Shown here piece after piece: positions 1,199 to 17,557 of a stretch of DNA of 64,000 nucleotides (position 1 is its first letter; every line of letters starts with the position of its first letter). The stretch lies in assembly GCF_024666525.1 (NCBI RefSeq), contig NZ_CP088294.1, positions 4,798,928 through 4,862,927 on the forward strand, written 5' to 3'. The position numbers and the translations under genes are program-made. Under the pieces are notes generated by a model. That model was not told where the DNA came from. It did not search any database and saw only the letters and a list, made by a program, of their open reading frames with translations. The DNA comes from Pseudomonas sp. J452. Lineage in GTDB: Bacteria > Pseudomonadota > Gammaproteobacteria > Pseudomonadales > Pseudomonadaceae.

Positions 1199-1960
1199 TC
1201 AGGCGGCCAGACCGGTGCCGCCCGTAGCCATGACGATATGCCCGCGAATCGCGGTAGAGCGATCAGAGGCAAGAAAGGCGACGATATTGGCGATTTCCAT
1301 CGGCTCCAGCGCCCAGCGCCGCCCCACCGACTCCAGACGCCCGATCATCCCCGGCCACATCTCCGACAGGTACGGCAGCATCTCGCTCTTGACCACGCCG
1401 CCGCAGACGCCGTTGACGCGGATGCCCTTGTCGTACAGGTCCACCTCCATATAGCGCACCAGGTTTTCCAGCGCGGCCTTCATCAGGCCCAGCGGGTAGT
1501 TCGGCAATACCGCATGGGAGCCAACACCGGAGATGGCGCAGATGGTGCCTCCGGCCGGCATCAATGGCACTACGTGGTTGATACAGGCGACGTTGCCGAT
1601 CAGGCTGGTGCCGAACAGCTCCTTCCAGTCGTGCTTGGTCAGCTCGCGAATCGACTTGAATGGCGCGCTGGCGGCGTTGAGCACCAGATGATCGATGCGC
1701 TCGACGCCCTCGGCCTGCAGGTTCTTGACCATCTGCTCGATGTCGCGCGTCTCGGAGATATCCGCCTGTGCCTTGTAGGCCCGCACACCACGAGCCTCGG
1801 CGTGCGCCACCAGTTTGTCGACGCTGGCCGCGCCCTTGCCCTGGGCCCGGCGGAAATTGAGGATGACGTCGTAACCGTCTTCGATAAAGCGTTCGGCGAT
1901 AGCCGCGCCGATGCCGCGCGCGGCCCCGGTGATCAGAACAGTTTCCCGCTGTGCACTCAT
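1199..1960 (-). CDS. SDR-family oxidoreductase, FabL-like (possible enoyl-ACP reductase)
   Basis: This 253-residue Rossmann-fold reductase has the cofactor loop TGAARGIG (residues 11-18) and LVLNAAS near 93. The region after it resembles the FabL branch of enoyl-ACP reductases more than classical FabG: VLPNYPLGLMKAALENLVRY followed by GIRVNGVCGGVV. The catalytic Tyr155 and Lys161 are separated by five residues, whereas classical SDRs have three and FabI/FabL have six, so the class is not settled by motif alone. It is the last gene of the minus-strand fatty-acid-like block but is separated from the ABC permease gene by 235 bases, so it may have its own promoter. An enoyl reductase would complete the cycle KS-KR-DH-ER; a ketoreductase role is the alternative. 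Confidence 0.75.
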   Translation of the reverse strand: MSAQRETVLITGAARGIGAAIAERFIEDGYDVILNFRRAQGKGAASVDKLVAHAEARGVRAYKAQADISETRDIEQMVKNLQAEGVERIDHLVLNAASAPFKSIRELTKHDWKELFGTSLIGNVACINHVVPLMPAGGTICAISGVGSHAVLPNYPLGLMKAALENLVRYMEVDLYDKGIRVNGVCGGVVKSEMLPYLSEMWPGMIGRLESVGRRWALEPMEIANIVAFLASDRSTAIRGHIVMATGGTGLAA

Positions 1961-2122
1961 AACTTTCTTTCCCCAGATGATGAAGCGCCTAGTCCGTCAG
2001 TCATTCACCGCGGCTGCGCATTTCTTATTAACCACGGAACAACTTTCGCTGTTTCACTGACAACTTTATGAGCATTACCCAAACACTCTTCGAGTAACTT
2101 TCATCGCCCCACTCATCACAGG

Positions 2123-2150
2123 TCTATAACTGCACAACGACTTGCACAAC
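2123..2150 (-). promoter_or_regulatory. Possible promoter/operator of the FabL-like gene
   Basis: The 235-base gap upstream of the reductase is visibly richer in A+T than its surroundings. It contains an exact direct repeat, TGCACAAC at 2131-2138 and 2143-2150 on the plus strand (12-base period, about one helical turn). Next to it on the minus strand is a TATAGA -10-like hexamer (2123-2128). The spacing to the best -35-like sequence is only 15 bases, so the promoter call is weak; the repeat could be a regulator site. Confidence 0.3.
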
Positions 2151-2195
2151 TTCACGAGTACCGCCAAGGGCATTGCTAATTACTTGTTACGCTTA

Positions 2196-3521
2196 TCAGG
2201 TAAAGCGGAAGGCCTCCGCGATCAGCAACTTCGACGCGCGTTTGGCCGGAATGATCGAGGCCAGTACAGCGGTCACTATGGCCAGGGCGCAGGTGAACCA
2301 GAACAGGTTGAAGTTCTCGTCCCACAGGATGAACGCCAGGTAACCCTTGGTGTATCCGGGTGACGGCGGCATCGGCAGGCCGTTGATGTTGATCAGCTCG
2401 GCCAGGCCGATACCTACCGCCACGCTCAGCGCCGCGCCGAGCAGGCCGATGAAGATGCCCTCGAGGATGAACAGCCGCCCCACCTCACGCTGGGTCAGGC
2501 CCAGGGCGCGCAGGGTAGCGACCTCACGGGTGCGCTCGACCACGTTCATCATCAGGGTGTTACCGATCATGAACACCACGATCACGCTGACGATCGATTT
2601 GATGAAGAAGAAGATGCCGTCGAACAGGCTGACCACCTGGTGGTAGTACACCGCCAGTTCCGACCAGGGGCGTACCTCGAGCTTGAGGCCCTGTTGCTTG
2701 ATCAGGGTTTGTACACGCTGCAGCGCCGCGTCGGTCTGCTCGGTGTCGTTGAGCAGGATGATGATGCGACTGACCTCGTCGGTCTCCAGCAAGTCCTGGG
2801 CGGTCTTCAGCGGCAGCTTGAGGGCACGGTCGTCGTACTCCTTGATGCCGGACTGCATGACCCCGCGCACCGTCACCGACATGGCGTTCTGCCCGCCGGT
2901 GGGGTTGACCACCAGCAGGTCGAGGTCCGCGTCATAGCCCGCCGACAGGCCCTTGGCCACGCCGGTGCCGATGGTCGCGCCGAGCCCGTCGATGCGCGAC
3001 AGATCGCTGCCGAGGACGATGCGATCCAGCGCACCGAGGGTCAGCGAGCTGGCCGGCTCGATACCGACTCCGGAGATGAAGGTCGAGGTCTCCGACTCAT
3101 AGTGCGAGGCGATCCCGGAAAACTCGATCTGCCCGGTCACGGTCTTGAGCATCGGGCCGAGTTCGGCATCTTCTGCCAGGACCCGCTTGATCTGTTCGTA
3201 GCCGGGAATGCCGTAACGCAGCGGGTTGGTCGCGCCGCTGGCCAGGTAGCCCTCGCGATACAGCTGCAGGTGGCCGAGGTTGGTGCGGATGGTCTGCTCG
3301 CGCAGCGACGAGAAGGAGTGCTGGACGAAGCCGCCGAAGATGAACACCGCCCCACCGCCCATGATGATCGCCAGCAGGGTGATGCCGGAGCGGCGCCGCT
3401 GGCGGAACAGGTTGGCGAAGGCGTAACGGATCGAGGTCGGTCGTTTCAGGGCCGTCCACAGCACCAGCAGCAGGGCGTAGGCGATGATGGCGTTGGCCAG
3501 GTAATACAGCAGCTCGCTCAT
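2196..3521 (-). CDS. ABC transporter permease, FtsX/LolC/MacB type
   Basis: This is an inner-membrane permease of the mechanotransducing FtsX/MacB/LolCE superfamily. The 441-residue chain has a hydrophobic helix at about 4-24, a second at about 42-66 (with IIMGGGAVFIFGGF), a large periplasmic domain, then three C-terminal helices around residues 305-435 ending in IIPAKRASKLLIAEAFRFT. The extra first helix gives five predicted membrane segments instead of the usual four. The start at 3521 is chosen because it overlaps the previous stop as ATGA and has a GGAGGG ribosome site. With the LolD-like ATPase two genes upstream it would form a homodimeric transporter. The cluster context suggests it moves a lipid or acyl product out of the inner membrane; the substrate is inferred. 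Confidence 0.88.
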   Translation of the reverse strand: MSELLYYLANAIIAYALLLVLWTALKRPTSIRYAFANLFRQRRRSGITLLAIIMGGGAVFIFGGFVQHSFSSLREQTIRTNLGHLQLYREGYLASGATNPLRYGIPGYEQIKRVLAEDAELGPMLKTVTGQIEFSGIASHYESETSTFISGVGIEPASSLTLGALDRIVLGSDLSRIDGLGATIGTGVAKGLSAGYDADLDLLVVNPTGGQNAMSVTVRGVMQSGIKEYDDRALKLPLKTAQDLLETDEVSRIIILLNDTEQTDAALQRVQTLIKQQGLKLEVRPWSELAVYYHQVVSLFDGIFFFIKSIVSVIVVFMIGNTLMMNVVERTREVATLRALGLTQREVGRLFILEGIFIGLLGAALSVAVGIGLAELININGLPMPPSPGYTKGYLAFILWDENFNLFWFTCALAIVTAVLASIIPAKRASKLLIAEAFRFT

Positions 3522-4229
3522 TGTTCGCCCTCCACAATCGGCGCCAGCACGTAGTGGATTTCTTCCGCGGTGAGAAACAGCCGACTCGGCGCAGGCTGCT
3601 GCAGCAGTTCGGCCCACAGCGGCGAACGGCGCAATTGTTCACGCAGTTGCTCGGCCTGGGCCTGTTGCCCGTCTGCGTCGAGGGCACGGATCTGCAGAAA
3701 ATCGATCAGCGCAGCCAGGGACGCGGGCAACTCGCCCTGGCGCTGGCGCAGGTAGTCGAGGTCCTTCAGGGCCACCACATGGCGGCCGAACTCGGCGGGC
3801 ACGTAGACATCCAGGCGGGCGCGCAGGAAGCGCAGGCGCCAGTCGTCCGGCTGCTGGTCAACGGCCTCGTCGATCAGGAAGAAGCCGCGCTTGGCCAGTT
3901 CGGCGGCGCGAAAGTAGTTCTGCTTCTTGACGTATTCCCCGGCGGTGAACAGCCAGCCGTAACCCTCGTACATCTTGGCGTAGAGGTCATCCGGGTGCTG
4001 CTCGCGGTAGGCCGCCAGGGCCTCGATGGTCTGCTCGGCGACCCCATCGCTAGGCGCCTGGACCACGGCCAGAATGGCGCGATCACGGGCCGCGCTCAGC
4101 GAGCCGTCAGCCAGCAGGGCGTCCAGGCTGGCCCGGCTTTGCGCCCGATAGGCGTCGAGCGTGGCAGGTGGCTGAACGCTGGCCTGTACGCCGCCGGCCA
4201 GTACCAGGGTGAGCAACAGAGGCAGGCGC

Positions 4230-4237
<8 letters not shown>
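3518..4237 (-). CDS. Secreted helical protein of the ABC transporter operon, unknown function
   Basis: The 239-residue product starts with a clear signal peptide (MLKRLPLLLTLVLAGGVQAS), so it is probably periplasmic. The remainder is almost wholly helical and looks TPR-like, with repeated pairs such as LFTAGEYVKKQNYFRAAELA and LRFLRARLDVYVPAEFGRHV; no catalytic motif was recognised. The start at 4237 overlaps the ATPase stop by 8 bases and the stop overlaps the permease start, so the three genes are translationally coupled. A role as periplasmic adaptor between the transporter and the LolA-like carrier is an inference from context only. Confidence 0.75.
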
Positions 4238-4979
<742 letters not shown>

Positions 4980-5009: not shown

Positions 5010-6119
5010 TCACTGGCACCGCAACATCCAGGTGCCGCCGTGGCTGTCGCTCAGCGACAGGACTGCCGGTACGCCATCGTGGCCGGCGGCCTTGCGCTCG
5101 GCATAACGCTGCAGCGCCAGCAGTGGGTTGATGCCGCCGCTGTCGCCGAAGCGCCGACAGAGGTTTTCGTAGACCAGTTGATCGCCCATGGCCGCAGCCG
5201 CGCTGCCCTCCACCGCCGCCAGCAGACTGGAGGGGTAGTGGCCGCCATAGATGATCGCCCGTGGCTCCGGCAGCAGCGCCGACCAGGCCTGGCGCAGCGC
5301 CGCAGCGGCGGCCTCACGCCGGGCCGGCACGGCCAGGTACTGCGGCGCACCGAGCAGCACCGGCGCGGTCTTGGCCTTCAGTGCGGCCTCGGCACGCTTG
5401 AGCACGATGAAACCGGCGCGTTCGATGATCGGCGCATTGTGCTGACCGCCCTTGCCCAGCCAGCGCCGCTCCTGCTCGGCATTGCCGATCGCCTCGGAGA
5501 AACCCAGGGCCGGGTAGAAGCGGAACACCCCGCCGAGCAGCACGCTGTCGATATCGCCGCCATTGAGCAGTTCGCCCGCTACGCGCAGGCTCTGCACGAA
5601 ACCGGAGCGCCCCGCCTGCACCTTGCAGGAGTAGCCATCCACCGCATGCTCGCGCAGGAGGAATTTGGGAATCACGTCCAGATCGAAACCATCACGCCAG
5701 TTGAAGGCGTGTTCGAGGTGCGAGCACTGCCCCCAAAAATCCGAATAGACCAGAGCCAGGCGCTCCCGCGAACTGCGCCGACCACAACTGGCCTCGGCCG
5801 CAGCCAGCGCCTGCTTGGCGGCCTGACCGACGGCCGCGAGGGTTTCCCGGTAACCGGCCTTGTTCGCCTCAGGGCCGCCATCGACGCTGAAGCGACTGAG
5901 ATCCCACTGCCGCCGCCCGGTCTTGCGCACCGCGCGGCGATACAACTCGCCCTCCCAGGCGCGAAACCAGCGCTGCGTATAGGGCAGCGGCGCGCGCTCC
6001 GGCTGCACCACGGACAACCCGACCAGGGCCAGCGCCGTGCTGTTGGCGCCCTCCTCGCCGAGCAACTCGGCGCTGCTGGCGGCGCGGCTCGGGGTCAACT
6101 GCTTTTCTTCGACGGACAT
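5010..6119 (-). CDS. Degenerate beta-ketoacyl-synthase-like protein, predicted non-catalytic
   Basis: The 369-residue protein keeps the outline of a thiolase-fold ketosynthase: a helix after the nucleophile-elbow region, then LLNGGDIDSVLLGGV, later ERAGFIVLKR, and near the C terminus a block FGDSGGINPLLALQ where active enzymes have the second histidine (GHxxGAAG). The nucleophile elbow reads VQAGRSGFVQS around residues 167-176, with no cysteine, and no HGTGT-type histidine block can be found. All three catalytic residues therefore appear lost. A strong ribosome site (GGGAAGAG) precedes the start at 6119. It may be a structural or chain-length partner of the neighbouring ketosynthases, as in aryl polyene and aromatic polyketide systems; that role is inferred. 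Confidence 0.75.
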   Translation of the reverse strand: MSVEEKQLTPSRAASSAELLGEEGANSTALALVGLSVVQPERAPLPYTQRWFRAWEGELYRRAVRKTGRRQWDLSRFSVDGGPEANKAGYRETLAAVGQAAKQALAAAEASCGRRSSRERLALVYSDFWGQCSHLEHAFNWRDGFDLDVIPKFLLREHAVDGYSCKVQAGRSGFVQSLRVAGELLNGGDIDSVLLGGVFRFYPALGFSEAIGNAEQERRWLGKGGQHNAPIIERAGFIVLKRAEAALKAKTAPVLLGAPQYLAVPARREAAAAALRQAWSALLPEPRAIIYGGHYPSSLLAAVEGSAAAAMGDQLVYENLCRRFGDSGGINPLLALQRYAERKAAGHDGVPAVLSLSDSHGGTWMLRCQ

Positions 6120-6146: not shown

Positions 6147-7391
6147 TCACGCCAGGCGCGCCAACGTGCAGGCCGCGACGGAACCCTCGATGCCGAGGGC
6201 GAGCTTGACCACCTTGTCCGACACCAGCGGCAGCGGTTCGCGGTCGGCGTGCAACTGCACCCCGGCGGCGTTGTCCAGCGGCGCCTGGGCACGGAATGCC
6301 AGTAGGCGTTGTTGCTGCATGGCGTCGGCGAGAATGGCCAGATCGGTGAGGCCGCTGGCCGCCACCTGATAACCGAACTGCGCCTTGTACGAGACCGCCG
6401 GAATGCCGTTATCGCCCCACACCTTGCGCACCGCCATCAGCTCGGCCTGGTCACTGCCACGGATGCCGTTACCGTGCATGAAGATGCAGCCAACCTGCTC
6501 GGCGCTGACTTCTGCCTGCGCCAGCGAATCGTCGATGGTGCGCGAGATGGAGCGAAAATCCGGCGAGAAGGATTGCCCGCCGCGCGACGAACCGCCGCTC
6601 TGGCACATGGCAAAGCCATCGATCCGCAGGCGCCCCTGGCCACCGCGGGCTGCCAGGTGTTCGGGGCTTTCCAGCACCGTGGCGGCCAAGCCGCCGCCGA
6701 GCATCACCCCTTCGGTCGCCGCCGAGAACGGCTGCGTCACCGCACGCGCCAGGGCATTCAGGCCGCCCATGAACATCAGGTTGTACAGGGTCACCTGCTG
6801 CCAGGACGCGACCACGGCGATATCCGCGCGACCGGATTCGATCGCCTTGCTGGCCAGGTACAACGCCGACATGCTCGAACAGCTGGCGGTGGACAGCGCC
6901 AGCGGCGGCATGGCCAGTTGGTAATGCTGCATGAGCAGACGGCCGAGGCGCTCCTCGGCGTAGTTGTCGCTGTGCATCTGCTTGAGCGTCGGGTTGAGCT
7001 GCAGATCCTCCTGATCGTTGCGCTGCAGGTAGGCGGTGAATTCCATCACCTCCGGCTGCACGCCCTGCCCCCCGATATACAGCTGCACCCGCGGCCCGGC
7101 CAGGGCCTCAGGCCCCAGGCCGGCATGCTGGAGCGCTTCGTCGATCACTCGCTGGAGCAGTGCCAGGGCGGTCGGCGCATCGCTGCGGCGGCCCTTGACC
7201 AGCGCCGGCATGGCCACCTGCAGCGGGTTGAACGGCATGCCCAAACGGGCCGCCTCGCGCTCGTCCGGGAAGTACGGCCGGTAGTCGGCCTGGCGCTGTT
7301 CAGCCAGTGCCGCGACCAATGCCGGTGCGTCCAGGCCCAGGCCGTTGCAGGCGCCGACCCCGGAAATCACCGCCGCGCGGGGCTTAGGCAT
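6147..7391 (-). CDS. Beta-ketoacyl-ACP synthase homologue with altered catalytic triad
   Basis: The 414-residue FabF/FabB-fold protein keeps the nucleophile Cys171 (STASCSSMSAL) and the first histidine His306 (FMHGNGIRGSDQAE). The second catalytic histidine of the GHxxGAAG block is Tyr341 (KAQFGYQVAASG). A Cys-His-Tyr arrangement is unusual for an elongating ketosynthase and might mean altered decarboxylation, an acyl-transfer or priming role, or loss of function. The start at 7391 overlaps the end of the fused ketosynthase gene by 8 bases and is preceded by AGGG. It probably forms a homodimer or pairs with one of the two degenerate ketosynthase domains encoded on either side. Confidence 0.85.
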   Translation of the reverse strand: MPKPRAAVISGVGACNGLGLDAPALVAALAEQRQADYRPYFPDEREAARLGMPFNPLQVAMPALVKGRRSDAPTALALLQRVIDEALQHAGLGPEALAGPRVQLYIGGQGVQPEVMEFTAYLQRNDQEDLQLNPTLKQMHSDNYAEERLGRLLMQHYQLAMPPLALSTASCSSMSALYLASKAIESGRADIAVVASWQQVTLYNLMFMGGLNALARAVTQPFSAATEGVMLGGGLAATVLESPEHLAARGGQGRLRIDGFAMCQSGGSSRGGQSFSPDFRSISRTIDDSLAQAEVSAEQVGCIFMHGNGIRGSDQAELMAVRKVWGDNGIPAVSYKAQFGYQVAASGLTDLAILADAMQQQRLLAFRAQAPLDNAAGVQLHADREPLPLVSDKVVKLALGIEGSVAACTLARLA

Positions 7392-9933
7392 GCAGAGCAC
7401 CCTTGCGCAGAACCACGGCGTAGTTGTTGCCGCCGTCGGAAGCACCGATCAGCAGGGCATGCCGCACTTCACGCTGGATCGGCTCACGCACGAAGGCGAT
7501 ATCGTCGGCACAGAACTCGCGGGTGAAGGCGATCGGCATGATCTCGCCGGTCTTCATGGCTTCCAGCACCAGCGACAGGTTGAGCAGCGCGGCAGCCGAT
7601 TCGACGAAACCGAAATAGCCGTTGTAGTTGACCAGCGGAATCTCGGCGCTGGCGTTGCCGAACACTTCACGCACGGCCCCCAGTTCCTTGTCCGCACTCT
7701 CCGCCACGCCCCAGCTGGTGCCGCAGATCAGGTCGACCTGATCAAAACGCAGACCGGCATCATCCAGCGCCTGGCGGATCGCCGCCGTCATGGCATTGCC
7801 GCGCGCCAGCGCCGGCTCACCCGGGTAGACGGCATCGCAGGAGCGACCATAACCGACCACTTCGGCGAGAATCTGCGCACCGCGGGCCTGCGCACTGTCG
7901 ACATCCTCGAGCATGGCCACTGCTGCGCCTTCGCCGAGGACGAAACCACTGGGCTGGGCGCCGTAGACCTGAAAGGAGTCCGCCTCGGTGGTCCAGCTGA
8001 CGCGGGTACTGCCAGCCTGTGACATCAGCGCCGAGGAATAGGCATTCTCGTCGGCACCGCCGACCAGCGCCTGCGGCTGCAGGCCCTGACGCACCAGCTC
8101 GTAACCGTAAAACAGCGCACCAAACGAGGCGTTGTAGCCGGTCGACAGGGTGGTGTTGTAGCCCTTCATGCCCTTGGAGATGGCACAGAAGGTGGCAATC
8201 GAGTTCATCAGCGCCGAGGGGAACTCGAAAGTGCGCGCGCGGCGCGGGTCCGGGTACAGGCTCTGGGCATATTTGGCCACCGTCGACTGCGGGCCTTTGG
8301 ACATGCCCATGATCAAGGCGGTGTCGGTATCGCCGTGACGCACCTTCTTGCCGCCACTCTGCAGCGCCTGCTCCAGCGCCAGCAGACCGTAGGTGGCGAT
8401 CTTGCTGGCCTTGCGCGAGTCGAAGTTCTTCAGGTGCTTGCGCGGCTCGATATTGCGCACTTCATGGGCACGGAATTGCAGGGCACGGATATCACCCTCA
8501 CCGAGGCCGGCGAGCATCTCGCTGAGACGCGGGTTGGCCGCCAGCAGCTTCTCGTACTCCTGGCTGTTCTCGTCGCCATCCAGCCAGTCGCTCACGGCAA
8601 CCAGCGCCGAGCCCAGTTCACCGTCACGAATGCGCTGGCTGATCTGCTCCTGGCCATAGCCCAGGGAACTCAATGCGCCCATACCGGTAATCGCCACGCG
8701 GCGCGGGCGGTACTCGGTCTGCGGCACCTGCTCGGGCTTGACTGAGGAGACGATGCTGCAGTTGTTGCCGCCGAAGGCATAGTTGTTCTTCATGAACAGC
8801 TTGACGTCGTGCTGCTGGAACTCGTTGGGCACGTAGTTGAGGTCACAGCCGGTGCGCGGCACGCTGAAATTGAGGGTCGGCAGCACCTTGCCTTCGGGCA
8901 GGGTGACCAGACAGGCGATCAGTTCGATGATCCCGGCCGAGCCGATGTTATGGCCGAAGTAGGACTTGCTCGAACTGACCGGGATGTCGGCGATGTTGGG
9001 GAACACCTTCTTCATCGCCAGGGTTTCCGCGCGGTCGTTGGCTTCGGTGCCAGTGCCGTGGGCATTGATGTACTGGATCGCCTCCGGGCCGACCCCGGCA
9101 TTCGCCAGGGCCGCGCGCATCACCAGCGTGGCGCCCTCGGCACGCGGGTCCGGTGCGGTTTCATGGTGGGCATCGGACGAGGTGGCGTAGGAAATGATCT
9201 CGCCATAAATGGTCGCGCCGCGCGCCTTGGCGTGCTCGTACTCTTCCAGGACGATGGCGCCCGCGCCTTCGCCAATCGACAGCCCCGGCGTGCCGGAGAA
9301 CGGGCAGCAGGACTCCTCGCGCATCGCCTTGAGCGCATGAAAACCGGCAAAGGTCGGCAGGTAGACCGGGTCGGAACCGACGATCACCGCCACCGGATTC
9401 TTGTCGTTCTGGATCAGGTCGAAACCGATGCCGATGGCATTGGTACTGGCGGTACAGGCAGTCGCCACCAGTTCGAAACCGCCCTGCAGCCCCAGCAACG
9501 AGGTGACCACAGGACAGATGGAGGAAAAGTTGCCGGAGACTTCCATCTTGCGAACGGAAAACTCCTGCGGACGGTTTTCGATCAGCGGCATGATGGCTTC
9601 GGCGCCCGCGGAGGACACCCCGACCACCAGGCTGGTCTGTTGCAACAGCGGGTCGTTGAGCAGGCCGGCTTGCACCAGCGCATCGCGCCCGACCTTGTAA
9701 CCCCAGAGTACGGTGCGATCCAGCTCAGGCAGCAGTTCCTCGGCGATGCCTTCGTAGTCGACAGGCTGCAATACCTCGGAGGCCAGGGCATGGTCGAAAT
9801 ACTTGAGGAAATGCTCACTCGGACGGATCGACGCCTTGGCGGCGAACAAGCCCTCGCGGAACTCGTCCACGGTATTGCCCAGTGCCGTCAGCACGCCCAT
9901 CCCTGTGACTACTATTCGCTTGCGCTTGACCAT
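7384..9933 (-). CDS. Fused ketosynthase plus chain-length-factor-like protein
   Basis: This 849-residue protein is two ketosynthase domains in tandem. Residues 1 to about 400 are a complete FabF-type enzyme: Cys160 (VATACTASTNAI), His292 (NAHGTGTEAND) and His328 (SYFGHNIGSAG). Residues about 410 to 849 restart with RRVAITGMGALSSLG and keep the fold (GFVLGEGAAVAML), but every catalytic residue is replaced: Tyr600 (STGYNASFG), Cys737 (LICGTSWG) and Phe776 (NGYFGFVESA). The layout equals a KS-alpha/KS-beta (chain-length factor) heterodimer fused into one chain. The start at 9933 has AGGAG seven bases upstream. It is probably the elongating enzyme of the cluster, acting on the ACP encoded at 11234-11527. 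Confidence 0.92.
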   Translation of the reverse strand: MVKRKRIVVTGMGVLTALGNTVDEFREGLFAAKASIRPSEHFLKYFDHALASEVLQPVDYEGIAEELLPELDRTVLWGYKVGRDALVQAGLLNDPLLQQTSLVVGVSSAGAEAIMPLIENRPQEFSVRKMEVSGNFSSICPVVTSLLGLQGGFELVATACTASTNAIGIGFDLIQNDKNPVAVIVGSDPVYLPTFAGFHALKAMREESCCPFSGTPGLSIGEGAGAIVLEEYEHAKARGATIYGEIISYATSSDAHHETAPDPRAEGATLVMRAALANAGVGPEAIQYINAHGTGTEANDRAETLAMKKVFPNIADIPVSSSKSYFGHNIGSAGIIELIACLVTLPEGKVLPTLNFSVPRTGCDLNYVPNEFQQHDVKLFMKNNYAFGGNNCSIVSSVKPEQVPQTEYRPRRVAITGMGALSSLGYGQEQISQRIRDGELGSALVAVSDWLDGDENSQEYEKLLAANPRLSEMLAGLGEGDIRALQFRAHEVRNIEPRKHLKNFDSRKASKIATYGLLALEQALQSGGKKVRHGDTDTALIMGMSKGPQSTVAKYAQSLYPDPRRARTFEFPSALMNSIATFCAISKGMKGYNTTLSTGYNASFGALFYGYELVRQGLQPQALVGGADENAYSSALMSQAGSTRVSWTTEADSFQVYGAQPSGFVLGEGAAVAMLEDVDSAQARGAQILAEVVGYGRSCDAVYPGEPALARGNAMTAAIRQALDDAGLRFDQVDLICGTSWGVAESADKELGAVREVFGNASAEIPLVNYNGYFGFVESAAALLNLSLVLEAMKTGEIMPIAFTREFCADDIAFVREPIQREVRHALLIGASDGGNNYAVVLRKGALHA

Positions 9934-10037: not shown

Positions 10038-11186
10038 TCAGGCCTTGGCCTGCTGCTCGATCAGGCTCTTCGGTCGCGAGGCATCGACATAGCTGTGCTC
10101 CGCCGGGTTGACCATGAAGCTGAAGTTCTGCAGGAACGGAATCGCTGAAGTGTTGATGGCCACACGCCCACCGTTGCCGGCGATCTGGTACTGGTCGATA
10201 CCGGCATAGGCATACTCGCTGTCGAGCAGGGCCTGGCCGATATAGCCGTCGACGCCCACCGAATGACCGAGGGTGATGACCTTGCCGATCTGCTGTTCGC
10301 CACTGAACACCGCATCGCCCAGACCCAGCGTCGCGCCGTCACCCTTGACCACGAAGCCGACCACGCGCTGCTTGACGCCTTCTTCCAGCTTGGCCAGCAG
10401 CGCCTCGCGACCGATGAACTCGTCCTTGTCGTAGCGCACCGCCCACTGCAGTTGCAGCTCGATCGGGCAGGTGCTGAACTCACCGACCAGGGCCGGATCC
10501 CAGCAGGGGTTTTCCAGGCGCGACTTGCCCTGGAAGTCGATACCGCCGGCTTTCATGTCGAACTTGGCACCGACCTCGCTGGCACGCTGCCACAGGTCGG
10601 CGGCGCCTTCCTTGGAGGTCAGGACCTTGAAGGCGAACTCGCCGTGCTTGCCGGAGCGGAACAGGATCGCGTCGTCGACATGCATGAACTCGAGGAACGG
10701 CAGGCCGAGCACATCGAAGCCGTACAGTTCGGCCATCAGTTCCCAGCTGTAGGGACCTTCGAACAGGGTGGTGGTGAGGTTGTCGTTCTGTGCGCTGATC
10801 TGCACTTCTTCTTCGCCGACCAGGGCCTGCAGGCTGGCAGCCAGCTTGTCGCCGCGCAGCCACTCGGAGATCAGCAGGAAGCGCTCGTCATCGCAGAGCA
10901 CATAGAGGTCGGTGACGATCTGACCCTGATCATTCAGCAGCAGGGTGTACAGCGCCTGCTCGTCGCGGATCACCGAGAGGTCACCGCCAACCACGCGATT
11001 GAGGAAGTCGTAGCCATCGTCGCCCTGCACTTCGACGATGCCGAAGTGCGAGTAGTCGACCATCAGAATGTTCTTGCGCGAGGCCAGATGCTCTTCGGCC
11101 GGATGGCCATAGTGCAGCGGGATCTTCACGCCATTGCGTTCAACCAGAGTGGCGCCGGCGGCTTGATGAATGGATTCCAGACTCAT
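10038..11186 (-). CDS. GcvT-fold (aminomethyltransferase-like) protein in the acyl cluster
   Basis: The 382-residue protein has the folate-binding fold of glycine-cleavage T protein and its relatives (sarcosine and dimethylglycine dehydrogenases, DmdA, YgfZ). Visible features are an N-terminal segment ILMVDYSHFGIVEVQGDD, the LLNDQGQIVTDLYV strand that corresponds to the GcvT folate site, and a C-terminal barrel-like domain (VVGFVVKGDG, IGKVITLGHSVGVDGYIG). No lipoyl carrier H protein or P protein is nearby, so it is unlikely to be glycine cleavage. It lies between the ACP and ketosynthase genes with a good AAGGAG site. A one-carbon transfer or demethylation on an ACP-bound or free acyl intermediate is the natural guess, unproven. 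Confidence 0.82.
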   Translation of the reverse strand: MSLESIHQAAGATLVERNGVKIPLHYGHPAEEHLASRKNILMVDYSHFGIVEVQGDDGYDFLNRVVGGDLSVIRDEQALYTLLLNDQGQIVTDLYVLCDDERFLLISEWLRGDKLAASLQALVGEEEVQISAQNDNLTTTLFEGPYSWELMAELYGFDVLGLPFLEFMHVDDAILFRSGKHGEFAFKVLTSKEGAADLWQRASEVGAKFDMKAGGIDFQGKSRLENPCWDPALVGEFSTCPIELQLQWAVRYDKDEFIGREALLAKLEEGVKQRVVGFVVKGDGATLGLGDAVFSGEQQIGKVITLGHSVGVDGYIGQALLDSEYAYAGIDQYQIAGNGGRVAINTSAIPFLQNFSFMVNPAEHSYVDASRPKSLIEQQAKA

Positions 11187-12161: not shown

Positions 12162-12917
12162 TTAACGCATGATCAGGCCGCCATCGACCACCAGCGTCTG
12201 GCCGACGATGTAGCTCGATGAACTGGAGCAGAGAAAGGCAATCGCCTCGGCCACTTCACGGGTCTCCCCCATGCGCTGCAGAGGAATCACCGAGAGGGTC
12301 TGGCGGATCACGTTGCGCGGTACGCGCTTGGTCATCACCGACTCGATCAGGCCCGGCGCCACGGCATTTACCCGCACGCCCTTGGAGCCCAGTTCGGCGG
12401 CCAGGGTGCGGGTGAAACCGATCATCCCGGCCTTGGCCGAGCTGTAGTTGGTCTGCCCGAAGCTGTTGGTCATGCCGGCGATCGAGGAGACGTTGACCAC
12501 GGTCGCCAGCTTGGCCTTGCGCAGCATGCGCAGTGCCGCCTTGGTGGCCATGAAGGTGCCGTAGAGGTTGGTCTTGATGACGTCGTCGAATTCCTCGTAC
12601 TCCATCAGCGAGAACAGGTTGTCGCGGTACTTGCCGGCATTGTTGACCAGCACATCGAGCTTGCCGTCGGCTTCTTCGATGACGGTCATGGCCGCTTCCA
12701 GTTCATCCTTTTTGGTGATGTCGCACTTCAGCGCGATCACGCGTCCGGCGTACTCCTGACGGTCCGCCAGTTCGCCGAGGCGTGCCGGATTGCTGTTGTA
12801 GGTGGCGTACACCTTGCAACCGTCCTCCAGCAATTTCTCGCACACCGCCAGGCCGATATCGCCACTTGCCCCGGTCACTAACGCGACCTTCCCCTGCAAA
12901 TCCGAAAACGTTGCCAT
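12162..12917 (-). CDS. 3-oxoacyl-ACP reductase, FabG-like
   Basis: This 251-residue classical SDR reduces 3-ketoacyl-ACP with NADPH. It has the cofactor loop VTGASGDIG, LVNNAGKYRDN, the catalytic Ser in NVSSIAGM, and a classical Tyr-x3-Lys in TNYSSAKAG, ending VVDGGLIMR. It sits between the AcpS-type and dehydratase genes in the same tight operon. Unlike the SDR at 1199-1960, its active site is fully canonical, so this is the ketoreductase of the pathway. Confidence 0.93.
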   Translation of the reverse strand: MATFSDLQGKVALVTGASGDIGLAVCEKLLEDGCKVYATYNSNPARLGELADRQEYAGRVIALKCDITKKDELEAAMTVIEEADGKLDVLVNNAGKYRDNLFSLMEYEEFDDVIKTNLYGTFMATKAALRMLRKAKLATVVNVSSIAGMTNSFGQTNYSSAKAGMIGFTRTLAAELGSKGVRVNAVAPGLIESVMTKRVPRNVIRQTLSVIPLQRMGETREVAEAIAFLCSSSSSYIVGQTLVVDGGLIMR

Positions 12918-12943: not shown

Positions 12944-13312
12944 TTAACCGAGCACAACTGCCGCCACTGCGTGCGTGCCGCAGTGGGATATGCTCAAACT
13001 CGCCGCACTCAAACCTGACTGCTGCATGACTTCACGAAAACGGCCGGCCAATACCAGGTACGGCCGCCCCCTCTCCTCGTGTTCTATTTGCATGTCGTGA
13101 AACAGGATGCCGTCGCCAAAGCCGGTACCCAGGGCTTTCACCGCTGCTTCCTTGGCCGCCCAGATACCGGCCGCGCGCTCCGGGTTCTCCTCGGGGTTGC
13201 CGATGTAAGCCAGTTCGCGTTCGGTGTAGACCCGCGTCATGAAACCTTCGCCGCTGCGCTGGCTGGCGGTGCGGATACGCTCGATCTGCACGATGTCGAT
13301 GCCGATATGCAT
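12944..13312 (-). CDS. Cluster-specific holo-ACP synthase (AcpS-type phosphopantetheinyl transferase)
   Basis: This 122-residue enzyme transfers phosphopantetheine from coenzyme A to apo-ACP. AcpS hallmarks are the N-terminal MHIGIDIVQIERI with the metal-binding Asp, WAAKEAAVKALGTGF in the middle and SISHCGTHAVAAVV at the C terminus. Its length fits the short trimeric AcpS class. Housekeeping acpS normally lies beside pdxJ; this copy lies between a membrane protein gene (gap 2 bases) and the FabG-like gene, which suggests it is dedicated to the cluster ACP. Confidence 0.92.
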   Translation of the reverse strand: MHIGIDIVQIERIRTASQRSGEGFMTRVYTERELAYIGNPEENPERAAGIWAAKEAAVKALGTGFGDGILFHDMQIEHEERGRPYLVLAGRFREVMQQSGLSAASLSISHCGTHAVAAVVLG

Positions 13313-13314
13313 GC

Positions 13315-14364
13315 TCAGTTGAACTCCGCCATGCGCCGCGGCACCGCCACTGGCTGCACGGCCTGCTCATCGATGAACTGCGTGGCCTGTTCGGCATCAC
13401 GCTGCAGGGTCAAGCCGCGCTCCTGCCAGAACACCCAACCGAGGGCCGGCAGCAGCAACAGACAGAACAGTGGGAATGGCAGGACCAGCGGCAACAGGCT
13501 GAGCACCAGGCAGCAACCCAGGGTCCACAGCGCCAATACGCCGTAGTAGGCAAGCAGGCGCTGCAGCAATGGCCGCACCGGCCGCGCCGAGACAGCAGCG
13601 GCGCTGAACAGGCTGGAAAGGCCCTCGCCGACCCGCGAGAACAACCGCGAGCGGCGCGCGCCGAGCAAGGTGAAGAACCCGGCGATCCAGATCAGTAGCA
13701 GCGCCGCGACCATGAATTCGGGCGTGCCGTAGCCCGCCGCCAGACTGAATTCCGGCTTGTCCTGCAGGGGCCAGATCAGTACCCAGTTGATGGCCAGGGT
13801 GATAATCAGGTCCTCCCGCCGGAAGCTCGCCGCCTGACGCGGGCGGCTCAGCCCCTGGCGCAGGGTGTTTTCACCTTCCGGGCTGGCCAGCACCAGGAAG
13901 TAGCGGGCACTGCCCAGCAACAGCCAGCACAGCAACAGCGGAAACAGCCCACCCATCACCACCAGGGCAACCACGCCACGCTGCTCAGGAAACAGGCTGT
14001 GGCCCGCGACCAACAGCAGCAGTACCGACAACGTCAGCAAGGCCGGCATGCCCAGCGGGCTCTGCAGCGGATTGAGCCAGCGCAGCACTGGCGTAATTTT
14101 CAGGTTACGCACTGCACTCAGCTCGTCCCTGGACATCATGAATTTCGGTGCCAGGGTGCTGTAGATCCAGTATCCCGGCGCATCGCGAAAGGCGCCAAAG
14201 CTCACCCCGGCGGCAATCGCGCCACCGGCCAGCAGCAACTGCAGCAGCCCCAGTTCGGCACTGTTGCGCACCAGGGCAAAGGCCAGCAGCAGGCACAGCA
14301 GGGTGAGGCCGAACCACAGAGCCACGGCGTAACGGCCACGATGTCGCTGAAAAGTCGGAAGCAT
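13315..14364 (-). CDS. Polytopic inner-membrane protein of the acyl cluster, unknown function
   Basis: The 349-residue protein has about seven or eight hydrophobic helices: two near 12-55, two near 105-155, one near 190-205, one near 220-240 and two near 270-320. A basic and polar tail follows (LTLQRDAEQATQFIDE). The cytoplasmic loop after the second helix pair (APGYWIYSTLAPKFMMSRDE) is distinctive but not one I can assign. It is not an MMPL/RND or acyltransferase protein by visible motifs. Its place between the malonyl transferase and AcpS-type genes suggests a role in handling the product or anchoring the enzymes at the membrane. Confidence 0.7.
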   Translation of the reverse strand: MLPTFQRHRGRYAVALWFGLTLLCLLLAFALVRNSAELGLLQLLLAGGAIAAGVSFGAFRDAPGYWIYSTLAPKFMMSRDELSAVRNLKITPVLRWLNPLQSPLGMPALLTLSVLLLLVAGHSLFPEQRGVVALVVMGGLFPLLLCWLLLGSARYFLVLASPEGENTLRQGLSRPRQAASFRREDLIITLAINWVLIWPLQDKPEFSLAAGYGTPEFMVAALLLIWIAGFFTLLGARRSRLFSRVGEGLSSLFSAAAVSARPVRPLLQRLLAYYGVLALWTLGCCLVLSLLPLVLPFPLFCLLLLPALGWVFWQERGLTLQRDAEQATQFIDEQAVQPVAVPRRMAEFN

Positions 14365-14395
14365 GGTTCAGGAATCTCCGGGCAGTCGCCGCTGC

Positions 14396-15367
14396 TTACT
14401 CGGTCACGGCCGAAGCCGGTTTCGCGGTGATCAGCTCGGCGACATGCCGGGTGCTGAGCTGCTCTTGCAGTGCCGGGAAATCCAGCAGCAGGCGACTGAG
14501 CACCTTCTTCGGCCCAACTTCGAGACACAGGCGCACACCGCTGGCAGCCAGGCTGTGCATGGTTTCGCGCCAGCGCACGGTGGAGTACAGGTTGGTCACC
14601 AGGTCGGCACGCAGCTGCTCGGTGCTGCTCAGGCGCTCGGCCGCCTGATTGCCGAATACCGGCACCCGCGGCGCGGCGAAACTGAGGCTGTCGATTACCG
14701 CCTGGAAGTCTTCGGCGCCCGGACGCATCAGGCTGCTGTGCCAAGCGCCGTTGACCGGCAGGCGAACCTGCTCGAAGCCTTCGCGCAGCAGCACCGGCAG
14801 CAGCTCCTTGAGCGCCAGCTTGCAACCGGAAATCACCTGCTGGCGGGGCGAGTTGTCGTTGGCCACGGTGATACGGTCGGCCAGCTCGTGCAGGGCGATC
14901 AGCTCGGCGATGCCATCGCGGTCAATGCCCTTGATCGCATACATCGCGCCTTCGGTCTGTTCGGCCAGGGCCTGCATGATCCGGCCACGGGCGGCAACAC
15001 CACGGAACACGTCTTCCAGGCTCAGCACGCCGGCGGCATACAGCGCCGAGAACTCACCGACGCTGTGACCCGCCACGCAAGACTCGCCCACCGGCCCTTT
15101 GGCGCGCAGCGCTTCGAGGCAGGCGATGTTCACCGTGGTCACGGCCACCTGCTGGTACTGGGTCTTGTCCAGCTTGGGCAGCGGCCCTTTCAGGCACAGT
15201 CGGCGTACATCGAAGCCGGCGATATCACTGGCACAGTCCCAGACACGCGCGGTAAGCGGCGACTGATCGCAGACATCGCTACCCATGCCGATGTGCTGAG
15301 TACCCTGCCCAGGAAACAGCAGGGCACAGCCGTGCGTGTCGTTACCAGATTGCTCGTACGCCTGCAT
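14396..15367 (-). CDS. Malonyl-CoA:ACP transacylase, FabD-like
   Basis: This enzyme loads malonyl units onto ACP. The 323-residue protein has the acyltransferase N-terminal motif LLFPGQGTQHIGMG, the catalytic serine in VAGHSVGEFSALYAAG, and the second catalytic histidine in NGAWHSSLM. The start at 15367 lies inside the end of the beta-barrel gene (26-base overlap) and has a GGGGTGGGAT site. Malonyl versus methylmalonyl or other specificity is not certain; the GHSVGE elbow matches bacterial FabD. Confidence 0.92.
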   Translation of the reverse strand: MQAYEQSGNDTHGCALLFPGQGTQHIGMGSDVCDQSPLTARVWDCASDIAGFDVRRLCLKGPLPKLDKTQYQQVAVTTVNIACLEALRAKGPVGESCVAGHSVGEFSALYAAGVLSLEDVFRGVAARGRIMQALAEQTEGAMYAIKGIDRDGIAELIALHELADRITVANDNSPRQQVISGCKLALKELLPVLLREGFEQVRLPVNGAWHSSLMRPGAEDFQAVIDSLSFAAPRVPVFGNQAAERLSSTEQLRADLVTNLYSTVRWRETMHSLAASGVRLCLEVGPKKVLSRLLLDFPALQEQLSTRHVAELITAKPASAVTE

Positions 15368-16712
15368 ATCCCACCCCACTGGTTCCCAATCGACCAAATT
15401 CACTGCGCTCCCGCCCACCCAGATAACCGCCGCCGACATACACTTCAAAGTGCCGGCTAAGTTGCGAAGACAGGTGCAGATTCAACGCATAACTTTGATC
15501 TTCAAGGTTGTAGATAGTCGAAGTTTCCCACGACAGCCGTTGCAACTCCGCCTGATCGCGCTGGACATGCGCCATCAAATATTGACGGCCCAGCATCAGA
15601 TCACGACGTACCGTGTTATCGGTTTCTTGGGCAAACAACAATTGATAATCCCGAAACACCTCGGCACCACTGAAGCGATAGGCCTGTTCCGTCACGTCGA
15701 GGAAGTCGAAGTAATCATCCCAGTTGCTGTCATCCAGCCCCTGATCCTGAAACAGATACTCCACGGAAATGGCCAGGTTATTCTCCGTGGCATAGCGCAA
15801 ACCCGCAGCAAACTGGGTAAACACATCACGTTGCTGCTCAACGAAAACCTCATCGGCACTCGGCAATTGCCAAGACTGCAACTTGGCTAGGGCCGCGGAA
15901 CTAGTTTCGCGAATATCACTGCGATCACGCGCCGCCAGTTCCACATTCAGAATCCAGTCATCCGTCAAGAAACCGCTGGTGCCGAGACCGGCAGCGAAAC
16001 TTTCACCACCTAACAGCACAAACCGCGGATTGAAATCCTCAAATAACGACGAGGTATAGGCCGCGTAATAACGCTCTTCGCCATTGGTGCGCTGCAGCGT
16101 CGTCCACTCGGCAACCCGCGCTTTACTCGACTCATTCGCCAACTGCGGAATGGCGGCCAATTCGACCGTGCCATATTGATTGAACCATGATGCCTGTAGC
16201 GCTACCGAACCTTCGCGATAGCTATCACGCCAGGAAACGCCCATGGCATTGATTACACCCCGCGATGAGTAATTTCCCGGGCTCTGCAAAAAATCCAACG
16301 GACTAACAAAGAAGAACTGGCCGTTGCGAATATCTTTTTTCCCAACATCCACAAACAGTGATTCATGCGGACTTAATGACCAATAGGCTTCACGGATAAA
16401 ACCGTGATTGTCATAGCCATCATTGTCTTGCGCGCTACCGCTTTCACCATCATTCTGCATGCGCTCGCCATAGACATTCACATGTAACTTCGTGGTATCC
16501 ACCGCACAGTCGACGTTCAGCTCGCTGTACAACGCGGAGTGGCGCTGATCCTTACTGAAATCGCCCTGCGGATTGAGCTTGGCATCACGCACCTGCGCCT
16601 GCCCCGCCTCTACCCCGGAATACCCACCCGCACTGCAATCCACGGCCTGCGCAGGCCAGACCTGCATTCCAACGCCCGCACCGAGCGCCAGCAAAATCCA
16701 TTTGCGCATCAT
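15342..16712 (-). CDS. Outer-membrane beta-barrel protein (DUF1302-like)
   Basis: The 456-residue protein begins with a signal peptide (MMRKWILLALGAGVGMQVWPAQA) and continues as alternating amphipathic strands, ending in VGYAGVRAIW, the aromatic C terminus expected of a Bam-assembled barrel. Motifs such as FIREAYWSLSPHESLFVDVG and GQFFFVSPLDFL recall the DUF1302/alginate-export-like family that often accompanies LolA-like proteins. It follows the LolA-like gene by 17 bases. By eye its base composition is clearly lower in G+C than the enzyme genes downstream. It could be the outer-membrane exit or insertion point of the cluster product. Confidence 0.82.
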   Translation of the reverse strand: MMRKWILLALGAGVGMQVWPAQAVDCSAGGYSGVEAGQAQVRDAKLNPQGDFSKDQRHSALYSELNVDCAVDTTKLHVNVYGERMQNDGESGSAQDNDGYDNHGFIREAYWSLSPHESLFVDVGKKDIRNGQFFFVSPLDFLQSPGNYSSRGVINAMGVSWRDSYREGSVALQASWFNQYGTVELAAIPQLANESSKARVAEWTTLQRTNGEERYYAAYTSSLFEDFNPRFVLLGGESFAAGLGTSGFLTDDWILNVELAARDRSDIRETSSAALAKLQSWQLPSADEVFVEQQRDVFTQFAAGLRYATENNLAISVEYLFQDQGLDDSNWDDYFDFLDVTEQAYRFSGAEVFRDYQLLFAQETDNTVRRDLMLGRQYLMAHVQRDQAELQRLSWETSTIYNLEDQSYALNLHLSSQLSRHFEVYVGGGYLGGRERSEFGRLGTSGVGYAGVRAIW

Positions 16713-16729
16713 CAGGACACCAACTTCAA

Positions 16730-17557
16730 TTAGCGCAAGCGCAGCAAGTATTCTTTCTGGAAGTAGGCTTCTGGAACTTCTTCGAGGCGCACATCGGAAT
16801 ACAGCATGCGCGTGTACTGCTCTTTCTTCAGGCTGTCCTCGATGTATATCTCGTGCGGCCGATACTCACCAAGGGCCAATTTGTAATCCTTGTACCAGGC
16901 CCGTTTCAGCACCTTATCGCCGGTCGAGAGAAACTCCGCCTTGAACGGCCGGGAAGTTTCCACATCAACCCAGTAACTGATCTTCGGATAGGTCACATGC
17001 GGCCAACGGCGCTGCAACTCCAGGCGGTAGCACGGGCGCCCGTCACAGTCTTCCGTAGCGGCGACTGTCGCAATATAGGAAAGATCGAAGTCAGTGGCGA
17101 CCACATCGCCATTTGAAACCTGCCCAACCAGACGCTGCTGACGGGAAATAGGAATCGGCCGGCGCAACTTAGGTTCGTAATACCAAAGTTTATCGAAGAT
17201 CGATAACAACGACTTGCCACGCTCAGTTGGCGGATCAACAAAGCGCACCAAGGCGCGCGCATCACCGGCTTGCTCGGCAGTGGGCTTATAAAAGCGCATG
17301 GCGACGTCGAGACTTTGCCGGGAAACTTCTTGCTCGCCTTTCATTTCGACCAGGGTCAACGCATAACGAAAGGGTTCGGCAGGCGCTCGAATACGGTCGG
17401 CGCGACGAATAATCGCGACAGCCGGAGAGGATTCTTCGGTGGCTACAGAGGAAACAACGGAGTTATCTACGGGTACGGCTTCAGAAACCGCCGCACTATT
17501 CGGCGAAATAGCAAACAGCCCAAGTGCCAATAGAATAGAAATAACAGACGCTTGCAT
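16730..17557 (-). CDS. LolA-like outer-membrane lipoprotein-sorting family protein
   Basis: This periplasmic protein of the LolA-like family often annotated outer membrane lipoprotein-sorting protein is 275 residues with a signal peptide (MQASVISILLALGLFAISP). The family core is recognisable: ALVRFVDPPTERGKSLL, KLWYYEPKLRRPIPIS, then DLSYIATVAATEDCDGRPCY, YWVDVETSRPFKAEF and a C-terminal KKEQYTRMLYSDVRLEEVP. The ATG at 17557 is preferred over a TTG seven codons upstream. It is the first gene of the cluster and resembles the lipid carriers that accompany FtsX-type permeases and DUF1302-like barrels. It probably carries a hydrophobic product across the periplasm rather than housekeeping lipoproteins. 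Confidence 0.85.
   Translation of the reverse strand: MQASVISILLALGLFAISPNSAAVSEAVPVDNSVVSSVATEESSPAVAIIRRADRIRAPAEPFRYALTLVEMKGEQEVSRQSLDVAMRFYKPTAEQAGDARALVRFVDPPTERGKSLLSIFDKLWYYEPKLRRPIPISRQQRLVGQVSNGDVVATDFDLSYIATVAATEDCDGRPCYRLELQRRWPHVTYPKISYWVDVETSRPFKAEFLSTGDKVLKRAWYKDYKLALGEYRPHEIYIEDSLKKEQYTRMLYSDVRLEEVPEAYFQKEYLLRLR

What the first reader, a model, noticed from the sequence alone, without database searches (positions are those of the whole stretch)
1199..17557. Self-contained type II acyl-chain pathway next to fabB, with its own activation and export genes
One minus-strand gene run combines a complete elongation set (malonyl transferase, two ketosynthase genes plus a degenerate one, ketoreductase, dehydratase, FabL-like reductase, ACP), its own AcpS, a GcvT-fold protein, an ABC transporter, a LolA-like carrier and an outer-membrane barrel. 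Aryl polyene clusters share the KS/CLF-like pairs, ACP, dehydratase and LolA-like gene, but I see no ammonia-lyase, AMP ligase, glycosyltransferase or acyltransferase typical of them. I cannot match this gene set to a described pathway; a lipid or polyene made and placed in the outer membrane is the simplest reading.
Basis: partly seen in the sequence, partly recalled or inferred. Interest (0 to 1): 0.88.

Follow-up and report, generated by a model that had tools for sequence, protein, structure and literature searches.

The report
Conserved envelope-bound acyl-chain pathway
A block of sixteen genes in a Pseudomonas probably makes a fatty-acid-like chain of unknown structure and carries it towards the outer membrane; much the same block turns up in scattered enterobacteria, including a disease-associated E. 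coli lineage, and a common laboratory E. coli strain keeps only its tail end.

Summary
In detail: 1199-17557 is a tight minus-strand run of 16 genes, all under purifying selection. The block is conserved as a unit. I examined 17 loci that hold it (window included) in Pseudomonas, other Gammaproteobacteria and plasmids. Nine carry the FabL-like SDR (type A, window included); six lack it but have a two-partner-secretion pair directly upstream (type B, among them E. coli O157:H7); a Proteus locus lacks the LolA-like and barrel genes; one Klebsiella copy is broken. Of 5426 complete E. coli genomes 367 hold most of the block; 2652 have some match, in the rows sampled mostly only its tail (MCAT part plus ycdU). 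I found no characterised product. Best reading: a dedicated type II KS-CLF polyene or acyl-lipid pathway; a KS-like protein with Ser for Cys plus an inactive-looking thiolase-fold partner probably off-load the chain; a LolD/LolCE-like ABC system, LolA-like carrier and putative barrel export it. It is not an aryl polyene cluster: starter activation, glycosyl/acyl-transferase and RND genes are absent. GcvT plus fused KS-CLF recalls cyl (granadaene) operons and a Priestia plasmid cluster; that kinship is suggestive, not proved.

The parts
53..1147 (+). fabB-like ketoacyl synthase at the border (neighbour, not counted in the block; the gene as listed may lack its true 5' end)
   Evidence: PF00109/PF02801, N-terminal part of the profile missing; longer in relatives, 411 aa frame
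1199..1960 (-). SDR, FabL-like below cut-off; marks type A loci
   Evidence: 156.5 bits, cut-off 328; present in 9 of 9 type A loci, not found in 6 type B loci, Proteus or the broken Klebsiella copy
2196..3521 (-). FtsX/MacB-type permease, distant LolC/E relative (start inferred)
   Evidence: PF02687, PF12704; TIGR02212 94.6 bits, cut-off 362
3518..4237 (-). protein p260 with signal-peptide-like N-terminus, no family (start inferred)
   Evidence: no Pfam; homologue in 17 of 17 loci
4230..4979 (-). LolD-like ABC ATPase
   Evidence: PF00005; TIGR02211 245 bits, cut-off 307.75; Walker A and LSGGQ motifs
5010..6119 (-). p369, degenerate thiolase-fold protein, candidate partner of KS3
   Evidence: no Pfam; hhalign to KS3 over 105 columns E 0.0026 but probability 11%; model pLDDT 65, pTM 0.71; Foldseek best 6smo_E, a type II PKS ketosynthase complex, E 8e-10
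6147..7391 (-). KS3: KS-like protein with Ser at the nucleophile position, first active-site His and the Lys kept, second His replaced by Tyr (start inferred)
   Evidence: S188, H324, K354, Y359 invariant in 9 of 9; columns checked against KS
7384..9933 (-). fused KS-CLF: first half with Cys-His-Lys-His; second half without the Cys (start inferred)
10038..11186 (-). GcvT-fold protein, diverged from other GcvT
   Evidence: PF01571, PF08669
11234..11527 (-). acyl carrier protein
   Evidence: PF00550
11571..12152 (-). FabZ-like dehydratase
   Evidence: PF07977, TIGR01750 109 bits, cut-off 155, HFP and MPGV motif
12162..12917 (-). FabG-like ketoreductase
   Evidence: TIGR01830 263 bits, cut-off 298, YxxxK
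12944..13312 (-). AcpS-type phosphopantetheinyl transferase
   Evidence: PF01648, TIGR00516 above cut-off
13315..14364 (-). membrane protein, distant relative of E. coli YcdU
   Evidence: no Pfam; profile comparison with the ycdU-type proteins of type B loci, probability 99%, E 7e-20; helical low-confidence model without PDB match
14396..15367 (-). malonyl transferase, FabD-like (start inferred; overlaps the barrel gene)
   Evidence: PF00698, TIGR00128 239 bits, cut-off 261, GHSVGE
15342..16712 (-). putative outer-membrane barrel protein
   Evidence: no Pfam, no PDB match; signal-peptide-like start and terminal Trp read from the sequence; homologues in 16 of 17 loci
16730..17557 (-). LolA-like periplasmic carrier (start inferred)
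   Evidence: PF17131 E 2e-40; PDB 3buu E 4e-37

Best explanation
The block encodes a dedicated type II acyl-chain (probably polyene) assembly line with its own envelope export. AcpS activates the ACP, the FabD-like enzyme loads malonate, the fused KS-CLF condenses, and the FabG- and FabZ-like enzymes reduce and dehydrate; with no clear enoyl reductase the chain would stay unsaturated. The KS-like protein KS3, with Ser for Cys and without the second His, together with the inactive-looking thiolase-fold p369, would transfer the finished chain from the ACP to an acceptor. The LolD/FtsX-like ABC system with p260 lifts the product from the inner membrane, the LolA-like protein carries it and the barrel places or exports it. 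Shown by sequence: gene families, fusion, active-site states, conservation as a unit. Inferred: chain chemistry, acyl transfer, direction of export, outer-membrane location. The roles of the GcvT-like protein, the YcdU-like protein and the SDR are open.
For: Gene assignments. 17 loci examined: 15 have homologues of all 15 core genes (all but the SDR), Proteus lacks LolA-like and barrel, and in the broken Klebsiella copy, held only to the end of its record, AcpS and DH were not found. Purifying selection on all 16 genes. The KS half keeps Cys, Lys and both His in 8 of 8; the CLF half has Tyr, Ile, Asn, Glu or Gln for Cys in 8 of 8. KS3 has Ser in 9 of 9; one of its weak NCBIfam matches, second in rank and far below cut-off, is the cispentacin acyltransferase subunit AmcF. 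p369 thiolase fold. LolA-like match to 3buu. The SDR that could reduce enoyl groups is missing in 6 of 6 type B loci and in Proteus.
Against: No product known. A host enoyl reductase could act in trans, giving saturated chains. The SDR in type A may itself be an enoyl reductase (nearest FabL, below cut-off). Proteus lacks LolA-like and barrel genes and has a diverged ABC pair (27 and 30% identity), so this export set is not universal. KS3 of the window and of G921 has a Cys one residue after the Ser, so a shifted nucleophile is not excluded. AmcF also matches the KS-CLF, so it says little about KS3. The p369 model is modest (pLDDT 65) and the hhalign probability low. The barrel is not confirmed by any model.
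Confidence: 0.6

Rival explanations
1. Gram-negative branch of the cyl (granadaene) type of polyene pathway: the GcvT-like protein is the counterpart of CylF, and the KS-CLF, KR, DH, ACP, MCAT and phosphopantetheinyl transferase are those of their cyl equivalents, with CylE replaced by KS3/p369.
For: GcvT-type CylF, KS, KR, DH and ACP are listed as conserved in all cyl operons (section 7 of PMC6985545 read). A Priestia megaterium plasmid has PPTase-MCAT-KR-ACP-DH-GcvT-fused KS-CLF in a row, its CLF half likewise without the Cys and with a Gly just before that place. GcvT tree: 13 cluster GcvT plus Priestia on one side, 16 other GcvT on the other, 99/99. KS tree: Priestia KS beside cluster KS, 92/84, not starred.
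Against: No cyl sequence was compared. Priestia GcvT is a long branch (2.2) with at most 27% identity to any row, and its CLF half does not group with the cluster CLF. No glycosyltransferase and no evident CylE in the block; the paper calls CylE universal in cyl operons and reports them from Gram-positive bacteria and one chloroflexus. In a sample of Clostridia no GcvT locus looked at had a KS beside it.
Confidence: 0.35
2. Acylation system for a surface protein: the chain is attached to the two-partner-secretion exoprotein encoded upstream, as CdiC acylates class IV CdiA.
For: TpsA plus TpsB genes directly upstream in 6 of 6 type B loci and a TpsA-like gene without adjacent TpsB in Proteus. 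Lipidation of a TPS exoprotein has a precedent (abstract and passages of PMC8510554).
Against: No match to the O157 TpsA or TpsB in the held stretches of 9 of 9 type A loci, window 1-40000 included. No gene of the window's block has a toxin-acyltransferase Pfam match. A LolA-like carrier and barrel would not be needed for a protein that has its own TpsB.
Confidence: 0.15
3. Aryl polyene variant with a different starter unit.
For: Shared KS/CLF, ACP, dehydratase, ketoreductase and LolA-like protein; APE are said to be covalently attached in the outer membrane (passages of PMC8253772).
Against: No acyl-ACP synthetase, ammonia lyase, methyltransferase, glycosyl/acyltransferase, thioesterase or RND exporter among the 16 genes by Pfam (APE gene table); ABC/FtsX export and GcvT instead.
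Confidence: 0.07
4. A specialised saturated or hydroxy fatty acid for an unusual envelope lipid, with the SDR as enoyl reductase in type A and a host enzyme in type B.
For: SDR nearest FabL; FabB-like neighbour in 4 of 4 Pseudomonas loci.
Against: A KS with a Cys-less CLF half is, from general knowledge, the architecture of type II polyketide and polyene synthases rather than of fatty acid synthesis; own MCAT, AcpS and ACP argue for insulation from fatty acid synthesis.
Confidence: 0.2

Closest known systems
E. coli O157:H7 O-island 47 lipid genes (ECs1284 onwards, with TPS pair ECs1282-1283; identified by gene order)
   Same: AcpS-KR-DH-ACP-GcvT-KS/CLF-KS3-p369-ABC-p260-FtsX-LolA-barrel-MCAT-YcdU
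   Different: The window has the extra SDR, no TPS pair, and the LolA-barrel-MCAT-membrane segment at the other end; product unknown in both
cyl operon (granadaene) of Gram-positives
   Same: GcvT, KS, KR, DH, ACP, malonyl transferase, phosphopantetheinyl transferase, ABC export (gene table of PMC6985545)
   Different: No evident CylE, no glycosyltransferase; added KS3, p369, LolA-like, barrel; sequences not compared
Priestia megaterium pBM500 cluster (BMQ_RS26330-26280)
   Same: PPTase, MCAT, FabG, ACP, FabZ, GcvT and 809-aa KS-CLF fusion in a row
   Different: 28-40% identity; thioesterase and MFS transporter; no KS3, p369, ABC, LolA-like or barrel match
Aryl polyene clusters
   Same: Type II KS pairs, ACP, DH, KR, LolA-like protein
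   Different: No starter activation, tailoring or RND genes; GcvT and ABC/FtsX instead (gene table)
Lol lipoprotein sorting
   Same: LolD-, LolC/E- and LolA-like parts
   Different: ATPase and permease score below the Lol cut-offs and the LolA-like protein has no NCBIfam match; linked to acyl-chain synthesis

Membership tests
Gammaproteobacterial acyl-chain block (O-island 47 type) | AcpS, KR, DH, ACP, GcvT, KS-CLF fusion, KS3, p369, ABC, p260, FtsX, LolA-like, barrel, MCAT, YcdU-like together on one strand | tested here: met
   15 of 15 in the window and in 14 of the 16 other loci; YcdU-like protein linked to ycdU by profile comparison
Gammaproteobacterial acyl-chain block (O-island 47 type) | two-partner-secretion pair upstream | tested here: not met
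   no match to O157 TpsA/TpsB in window 1-40000 or in the other 8 type A loci, so it marks type B only
Aryl polyene cluster | KS/CLF, ACP, DH, KR, LolA-like | tested here: met
Aryl polyene cluster | starter activation (acyl-ACP synthetase or ammonia lyase) | tested here: not met
   none among the 16 genes by Pfam
Aryl polyene cluster | glycosyl/acyltransferase and RND exporter | tested here: not met
   gene table of PMC8253772
cyl (granadaene) operon | GcvT-fold CylF with KS, KR, DH, ACP | tested here: inconclusive
   counterparts present but no cyl sequence compared; a Priestia stand-in groups with the cluster GcvT on a long branch
cyl (granadaene) operon | CylE acyltransferase | tested here: inconclusive
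   no acyltransferase Pfam other than that of MCAT; CylE itself not compared
cyl (granadaene) operon | glycosyltransferase (CylJ or equivalent) | tested here: not met
   none among the 16 genes by Pfam
Lol lipoprotein-releasing system | LolC/E and LolD above curated cut-offs | tested here: not met
   94.6 of 362 bits and 245 of 307.75 bits
Polyene-forming type II PKS | polyene product | not testable with these tools
   needs extraction and mass/UV spectra

The most novel reading that the evidence does not exclude
The block is the Gram-negative arm of an ancient family of GcvT-containing polyene-lipid pathways whose Gram-positive members include granadaene. The GcvT-like protein acts not on the lipoyl H-protein but on a one-carbon or amino group carried by the neighbouring ACP, using folate; a Ser-nucleophile KS with a dead thiolase-fold partner replaces CylE as the off-loading acyltransferase; and the ABC-LolA-barrel set displays the polyene on the cell surface, where one branch combines it with a two-partner-secretion protein.
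Probability: 0.25. Interest if true: 0.82.

Novelty: new variant of a known kind. Interest (0 to 1): 0.6.

Why it matters
It ties a gene island of E. coli O157:H7 without known product, the orphan gene ycdU that many E. coli genomes still carry, a Proteus locus and a rare Pseudomonas block into one conserved pathway with a defined anatomy. That makes the product testable in an environmental host, offers a role for GcvT-like proteins outside glycine cleavage, and suggests a lipid-export use of LolA-like, FtsX-like and barrel proteins distinct from lipoprotein sorting.

Tried and rejected
First orthologue search with p369 in the class gave one weak match outside the window's genome (1 of 273 others, G128, E 5e-4); the 32 kb fetched around it held no other block gene and it was dropped. 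The barrel query in 57 relatives gave one weak match besides the window's own (E 9e-4), not followed. Seven weak p369 matches in the genus (E 4e-5 to 9e-4, at most 30% identity) were not examined and not counted. Two phylum hits at E 2e-42 and 3e-41 are ordinary fab operons. Of 80 loci kept by the genome-contig scan, 74 matched only the generic KS, SDR/KR, MCAT, ABC or DH queries.

CylF kinship in Clostridia: 43 of 196 genomes had a GcvT match at E <= 1e-20; none of the 30 loci returned had a KS beside it within its flank of about 1.5 kb; 13 further places without a locus were not looked at. A Georgenia GcvT hit lies among unrelated genes and a Nonomuraea one has no KS match in the stretch read. 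Structure of the YcdU-like protein: low confidence and no PDB match at E <= 0.001. No simple empty site at fabB: in the 4 same-genus genomes read, FabB is 75-76% identical and none of the window's tested flank or block genes lies within the roughly 9.7 kb read downstream of it.

While checking this report I found that my first reading of the CLF half (Gly at the Cys position) was one residue off and that one CLF half (Cedecea) keeps the second His; one search gives the corrected columns. The tie between the window's membrane protein and YcdU rested on position alone until.

Literature: searches showed no characterised product for this block; only an open-licence library was searched. Rfam and tandem-repeat searches were not run.
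Full report
WHAT IS THERE. The window lies at the end of a single 4.86 Mb contig; a same-genus genome (G412) has a contig of the same length, 738,209 bases, as Pseudomonas guryensis, so the genus is taken to be Pseudomonas. From 17557 down to 1199 sixteen genes run on the minus strand with short gaps or small overlaps (starts partly inferred): LolA-like, putative barrel, FabD-like MCAT, a membrane protein, AcpS, FabG-like KR, FabZ-like DH, ACP, GcvT-fold protein, an 863-aa KS-CLF fusion, a second KS-like protein (KS3), p369, a LolD-like ATPase, p260, an FtsX/LolCE-like permease and an SDR. A FabB-like gene lies beyond on the plus strand.

ACTIVE SITES. In 8 of 8 loci aligned the first half of the fusion keeps Cys, Lys and both His of a condensing enzyme. 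In the second half the Cys position holds Tyr, Ile, Asn, Glu or Gln, preceded by Gly; the first His is lost in 8 of 8 and the second in 7 of 8 (Cedecea keeps it). It is therefore a chain-length-factor-like half. KS3 has Ser where KS have Cys, keeps the first His and the Lys and has Tyr for the second His, in 9 of 9 (columns checked); in the window and G921 a Cys follows the Ser directly. Such a site fits acyl transfer rather than decarboxylating condensation (general knowledge of KS-like acyltransferases). p369 has no family, weak profile similarity to KS3 (E 0.0026, probability 11%), none worth the name to the CLF, and a predicted fold whose best PDB match is a chain of the AntDE:AntF type II PKS complex (E 8e-10; model pLDDT 65). 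The MCAT has GHSVGE, the KR YxxxK, the DH its HFP motif, the ATPase Walker A and LSGGQ.

THE GcvT-LIKE PROTEIN. Against 37 other GcvT rows (two genes appear twice), positions invariant there are changed in 8 of 8 cluster proteins, among others N108 to E, Y180 to K, T181 to H and R219 to Q; D93, E183, R223 and E225 are kept. From recall, several of these line the folate pocket of the glycine-cleavage T-protein. It is a diverged paralogue; what it does is not shown.

CONSERVATION. Genus search: 2 of 347 other genomes hold a clear p369 orthologue, and both hold the whole block. The scan of genome contigs kept 80 of 395 candidates; 6 hold the block: Pseudomonas guryensis (G412), Pseudomonas sp. 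F(2018), Cedecea, Serratia rubidaea, S. silvae (G1173, 100% identical) and Entomohabitans. In the order of G900, 5 of 394 genomes match at E <= 1e-60 and all 5 hold the block. In the phylum sample 4 of 299 pass 1e-40: the window's genome, G900 and two ordinary fab operons. The table of the 17 loci is. In the 4 Pseudomonas loci the LolA-barrel-MCAT-membrane segment stands first; in the other loci that have it, last.

BRANCHES. In the GcvT tree the 7 type A rows (with SDR) and the 6 type B rows (without) form two starred sets (98/97 and 98/98). Type A: 9 loci, none with a match to the O157 TPS pair in the stretch held. Type B: 6 loci, all with a TpsA and a TpsB gene immediately before AcpS; the broken K. 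aerogenes copy has no upstream sequence. Proteus has a TpsA-like gene (TPS domain E 6e-26), no TpsB match in the stretch read, a diverged ABC pair and neither LolA-like nor barrel gene. A DUF6134-type gene lies between p369 and the ATPase in 4 of 17 loci: Cedecea, S. rubidaea, S. silvae and G921 (Pfam above cut-off for Cedecea, below it for S. silvae).

E. COLI. 370 of 5426 complete E. coli genomes match the S. silvae KS-CLF DNA. With the O157 stretch from TpsB to ycdU as query, 2652 of 5426 have a match and 367 hold at least 80% of it. Of the 40 rows listed evenly down that ranking, 6 hold all of it, 33 hold only its last 1.2-1.5 kb (part of the MCAT gene plus ycdU) and one only 46 bases; the strain NEB Turbo is among the 33. 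The window's membrane protein and the ycdU proteins of type B loci are related by profile (probability 99%, E 7e-20). So ycdU is best read as the last gene of a mostly lost block (inference). The O157 genes are in print as a list: ECs1282-1289 (PMC1635569, passages) and 'adhesin and fatty-acid biosynthesis' for O-island 47 (PMC5567499, passages; PMC3893438 on the island's spread, passages). The exoprotein OtpA, by recall the TpsA of this locus, is listed as of unknown function (PMC5422565, passages).

SELECTION. Against G488 all 16 genes have dN/dS of 0.10-0.51. The barrel and LolA-like genes have much higher dS (1.43 and 1.32 against 0.34-0.90) and lower GC3 (0.59 and 0.60 against 0.75-0.89), which I cannot explain.

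MECHANISM. The reading is given under best explanation. The step best supported is chain assembly; chain type, off-loading by KS3/p369 and export to the outer membrane are inferred, in that order of certainty.

COMPARISON. It fails as an aryl polyene cluster on starter activation, tailoring and exporter. It resembles cyl operons in gene content, and a Priestia plasmid cluster links the two in architecture, but the trees support this only partly: 99/99 for GcvT with a long branch, 92/84 unstarred for the KS half, and no grouping of the CLF halves. In the cyl paper the words Gram-negative, Proteobacteria and Pseudomonas do not occur in the main text.

LITERATURE READ. PMC6985545: abstract, passages, section 7. 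PMC6920887, PMC3893438, PMC5567499, PMC5422565, PMC8253772, PMC1635569, PMC2323221: passages. PMC8510554: abstract and passages. Others: search listings only.

Noticed in passing
window 15342-17557: Barrel and LolA-like genes have lower GC (53-54%) and much higher dS against G488 than the other block genes.
   Followed up: no
L100:23712-25223 and E. coli genomes: E. coli ycdU and the adjacent malonyltransferase part look like the tail of this block, present without the rest in many E. coli genomes.
   Followed up: partly
L163:7828-17688: Priestia megaterium pBM500 carries a GcvT plus fused KS-CLF cluster with thioesterase and MFS transporter; the GcvT is also on three other Priestia plasmids.
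   Followed up: partly
L023:7920-14173: Serratia rubidaea NCTC12971 copy has GcvT, KS-CLF and p369 in several frames; could be decay or sequencing error.
   Followed up: no
L166: Klebsiella aerogenes plasmid copy is broken into many short frames.
   Followed up: no
L165:15208-17774: Rahnella plasmid KS-CLF is split into two frames.
   Followed up: no
L170:10295-12820: Proteus mirabilis has a TpsA-like gene beside its LolA-less version of the block, with no TpsB match in the stretch read.
   Followed up: partly
window 18998-21582: Beyond the block: a Lipoprotein_16 family gene and malate:quinone oxidoreductase.
   Followed up: no
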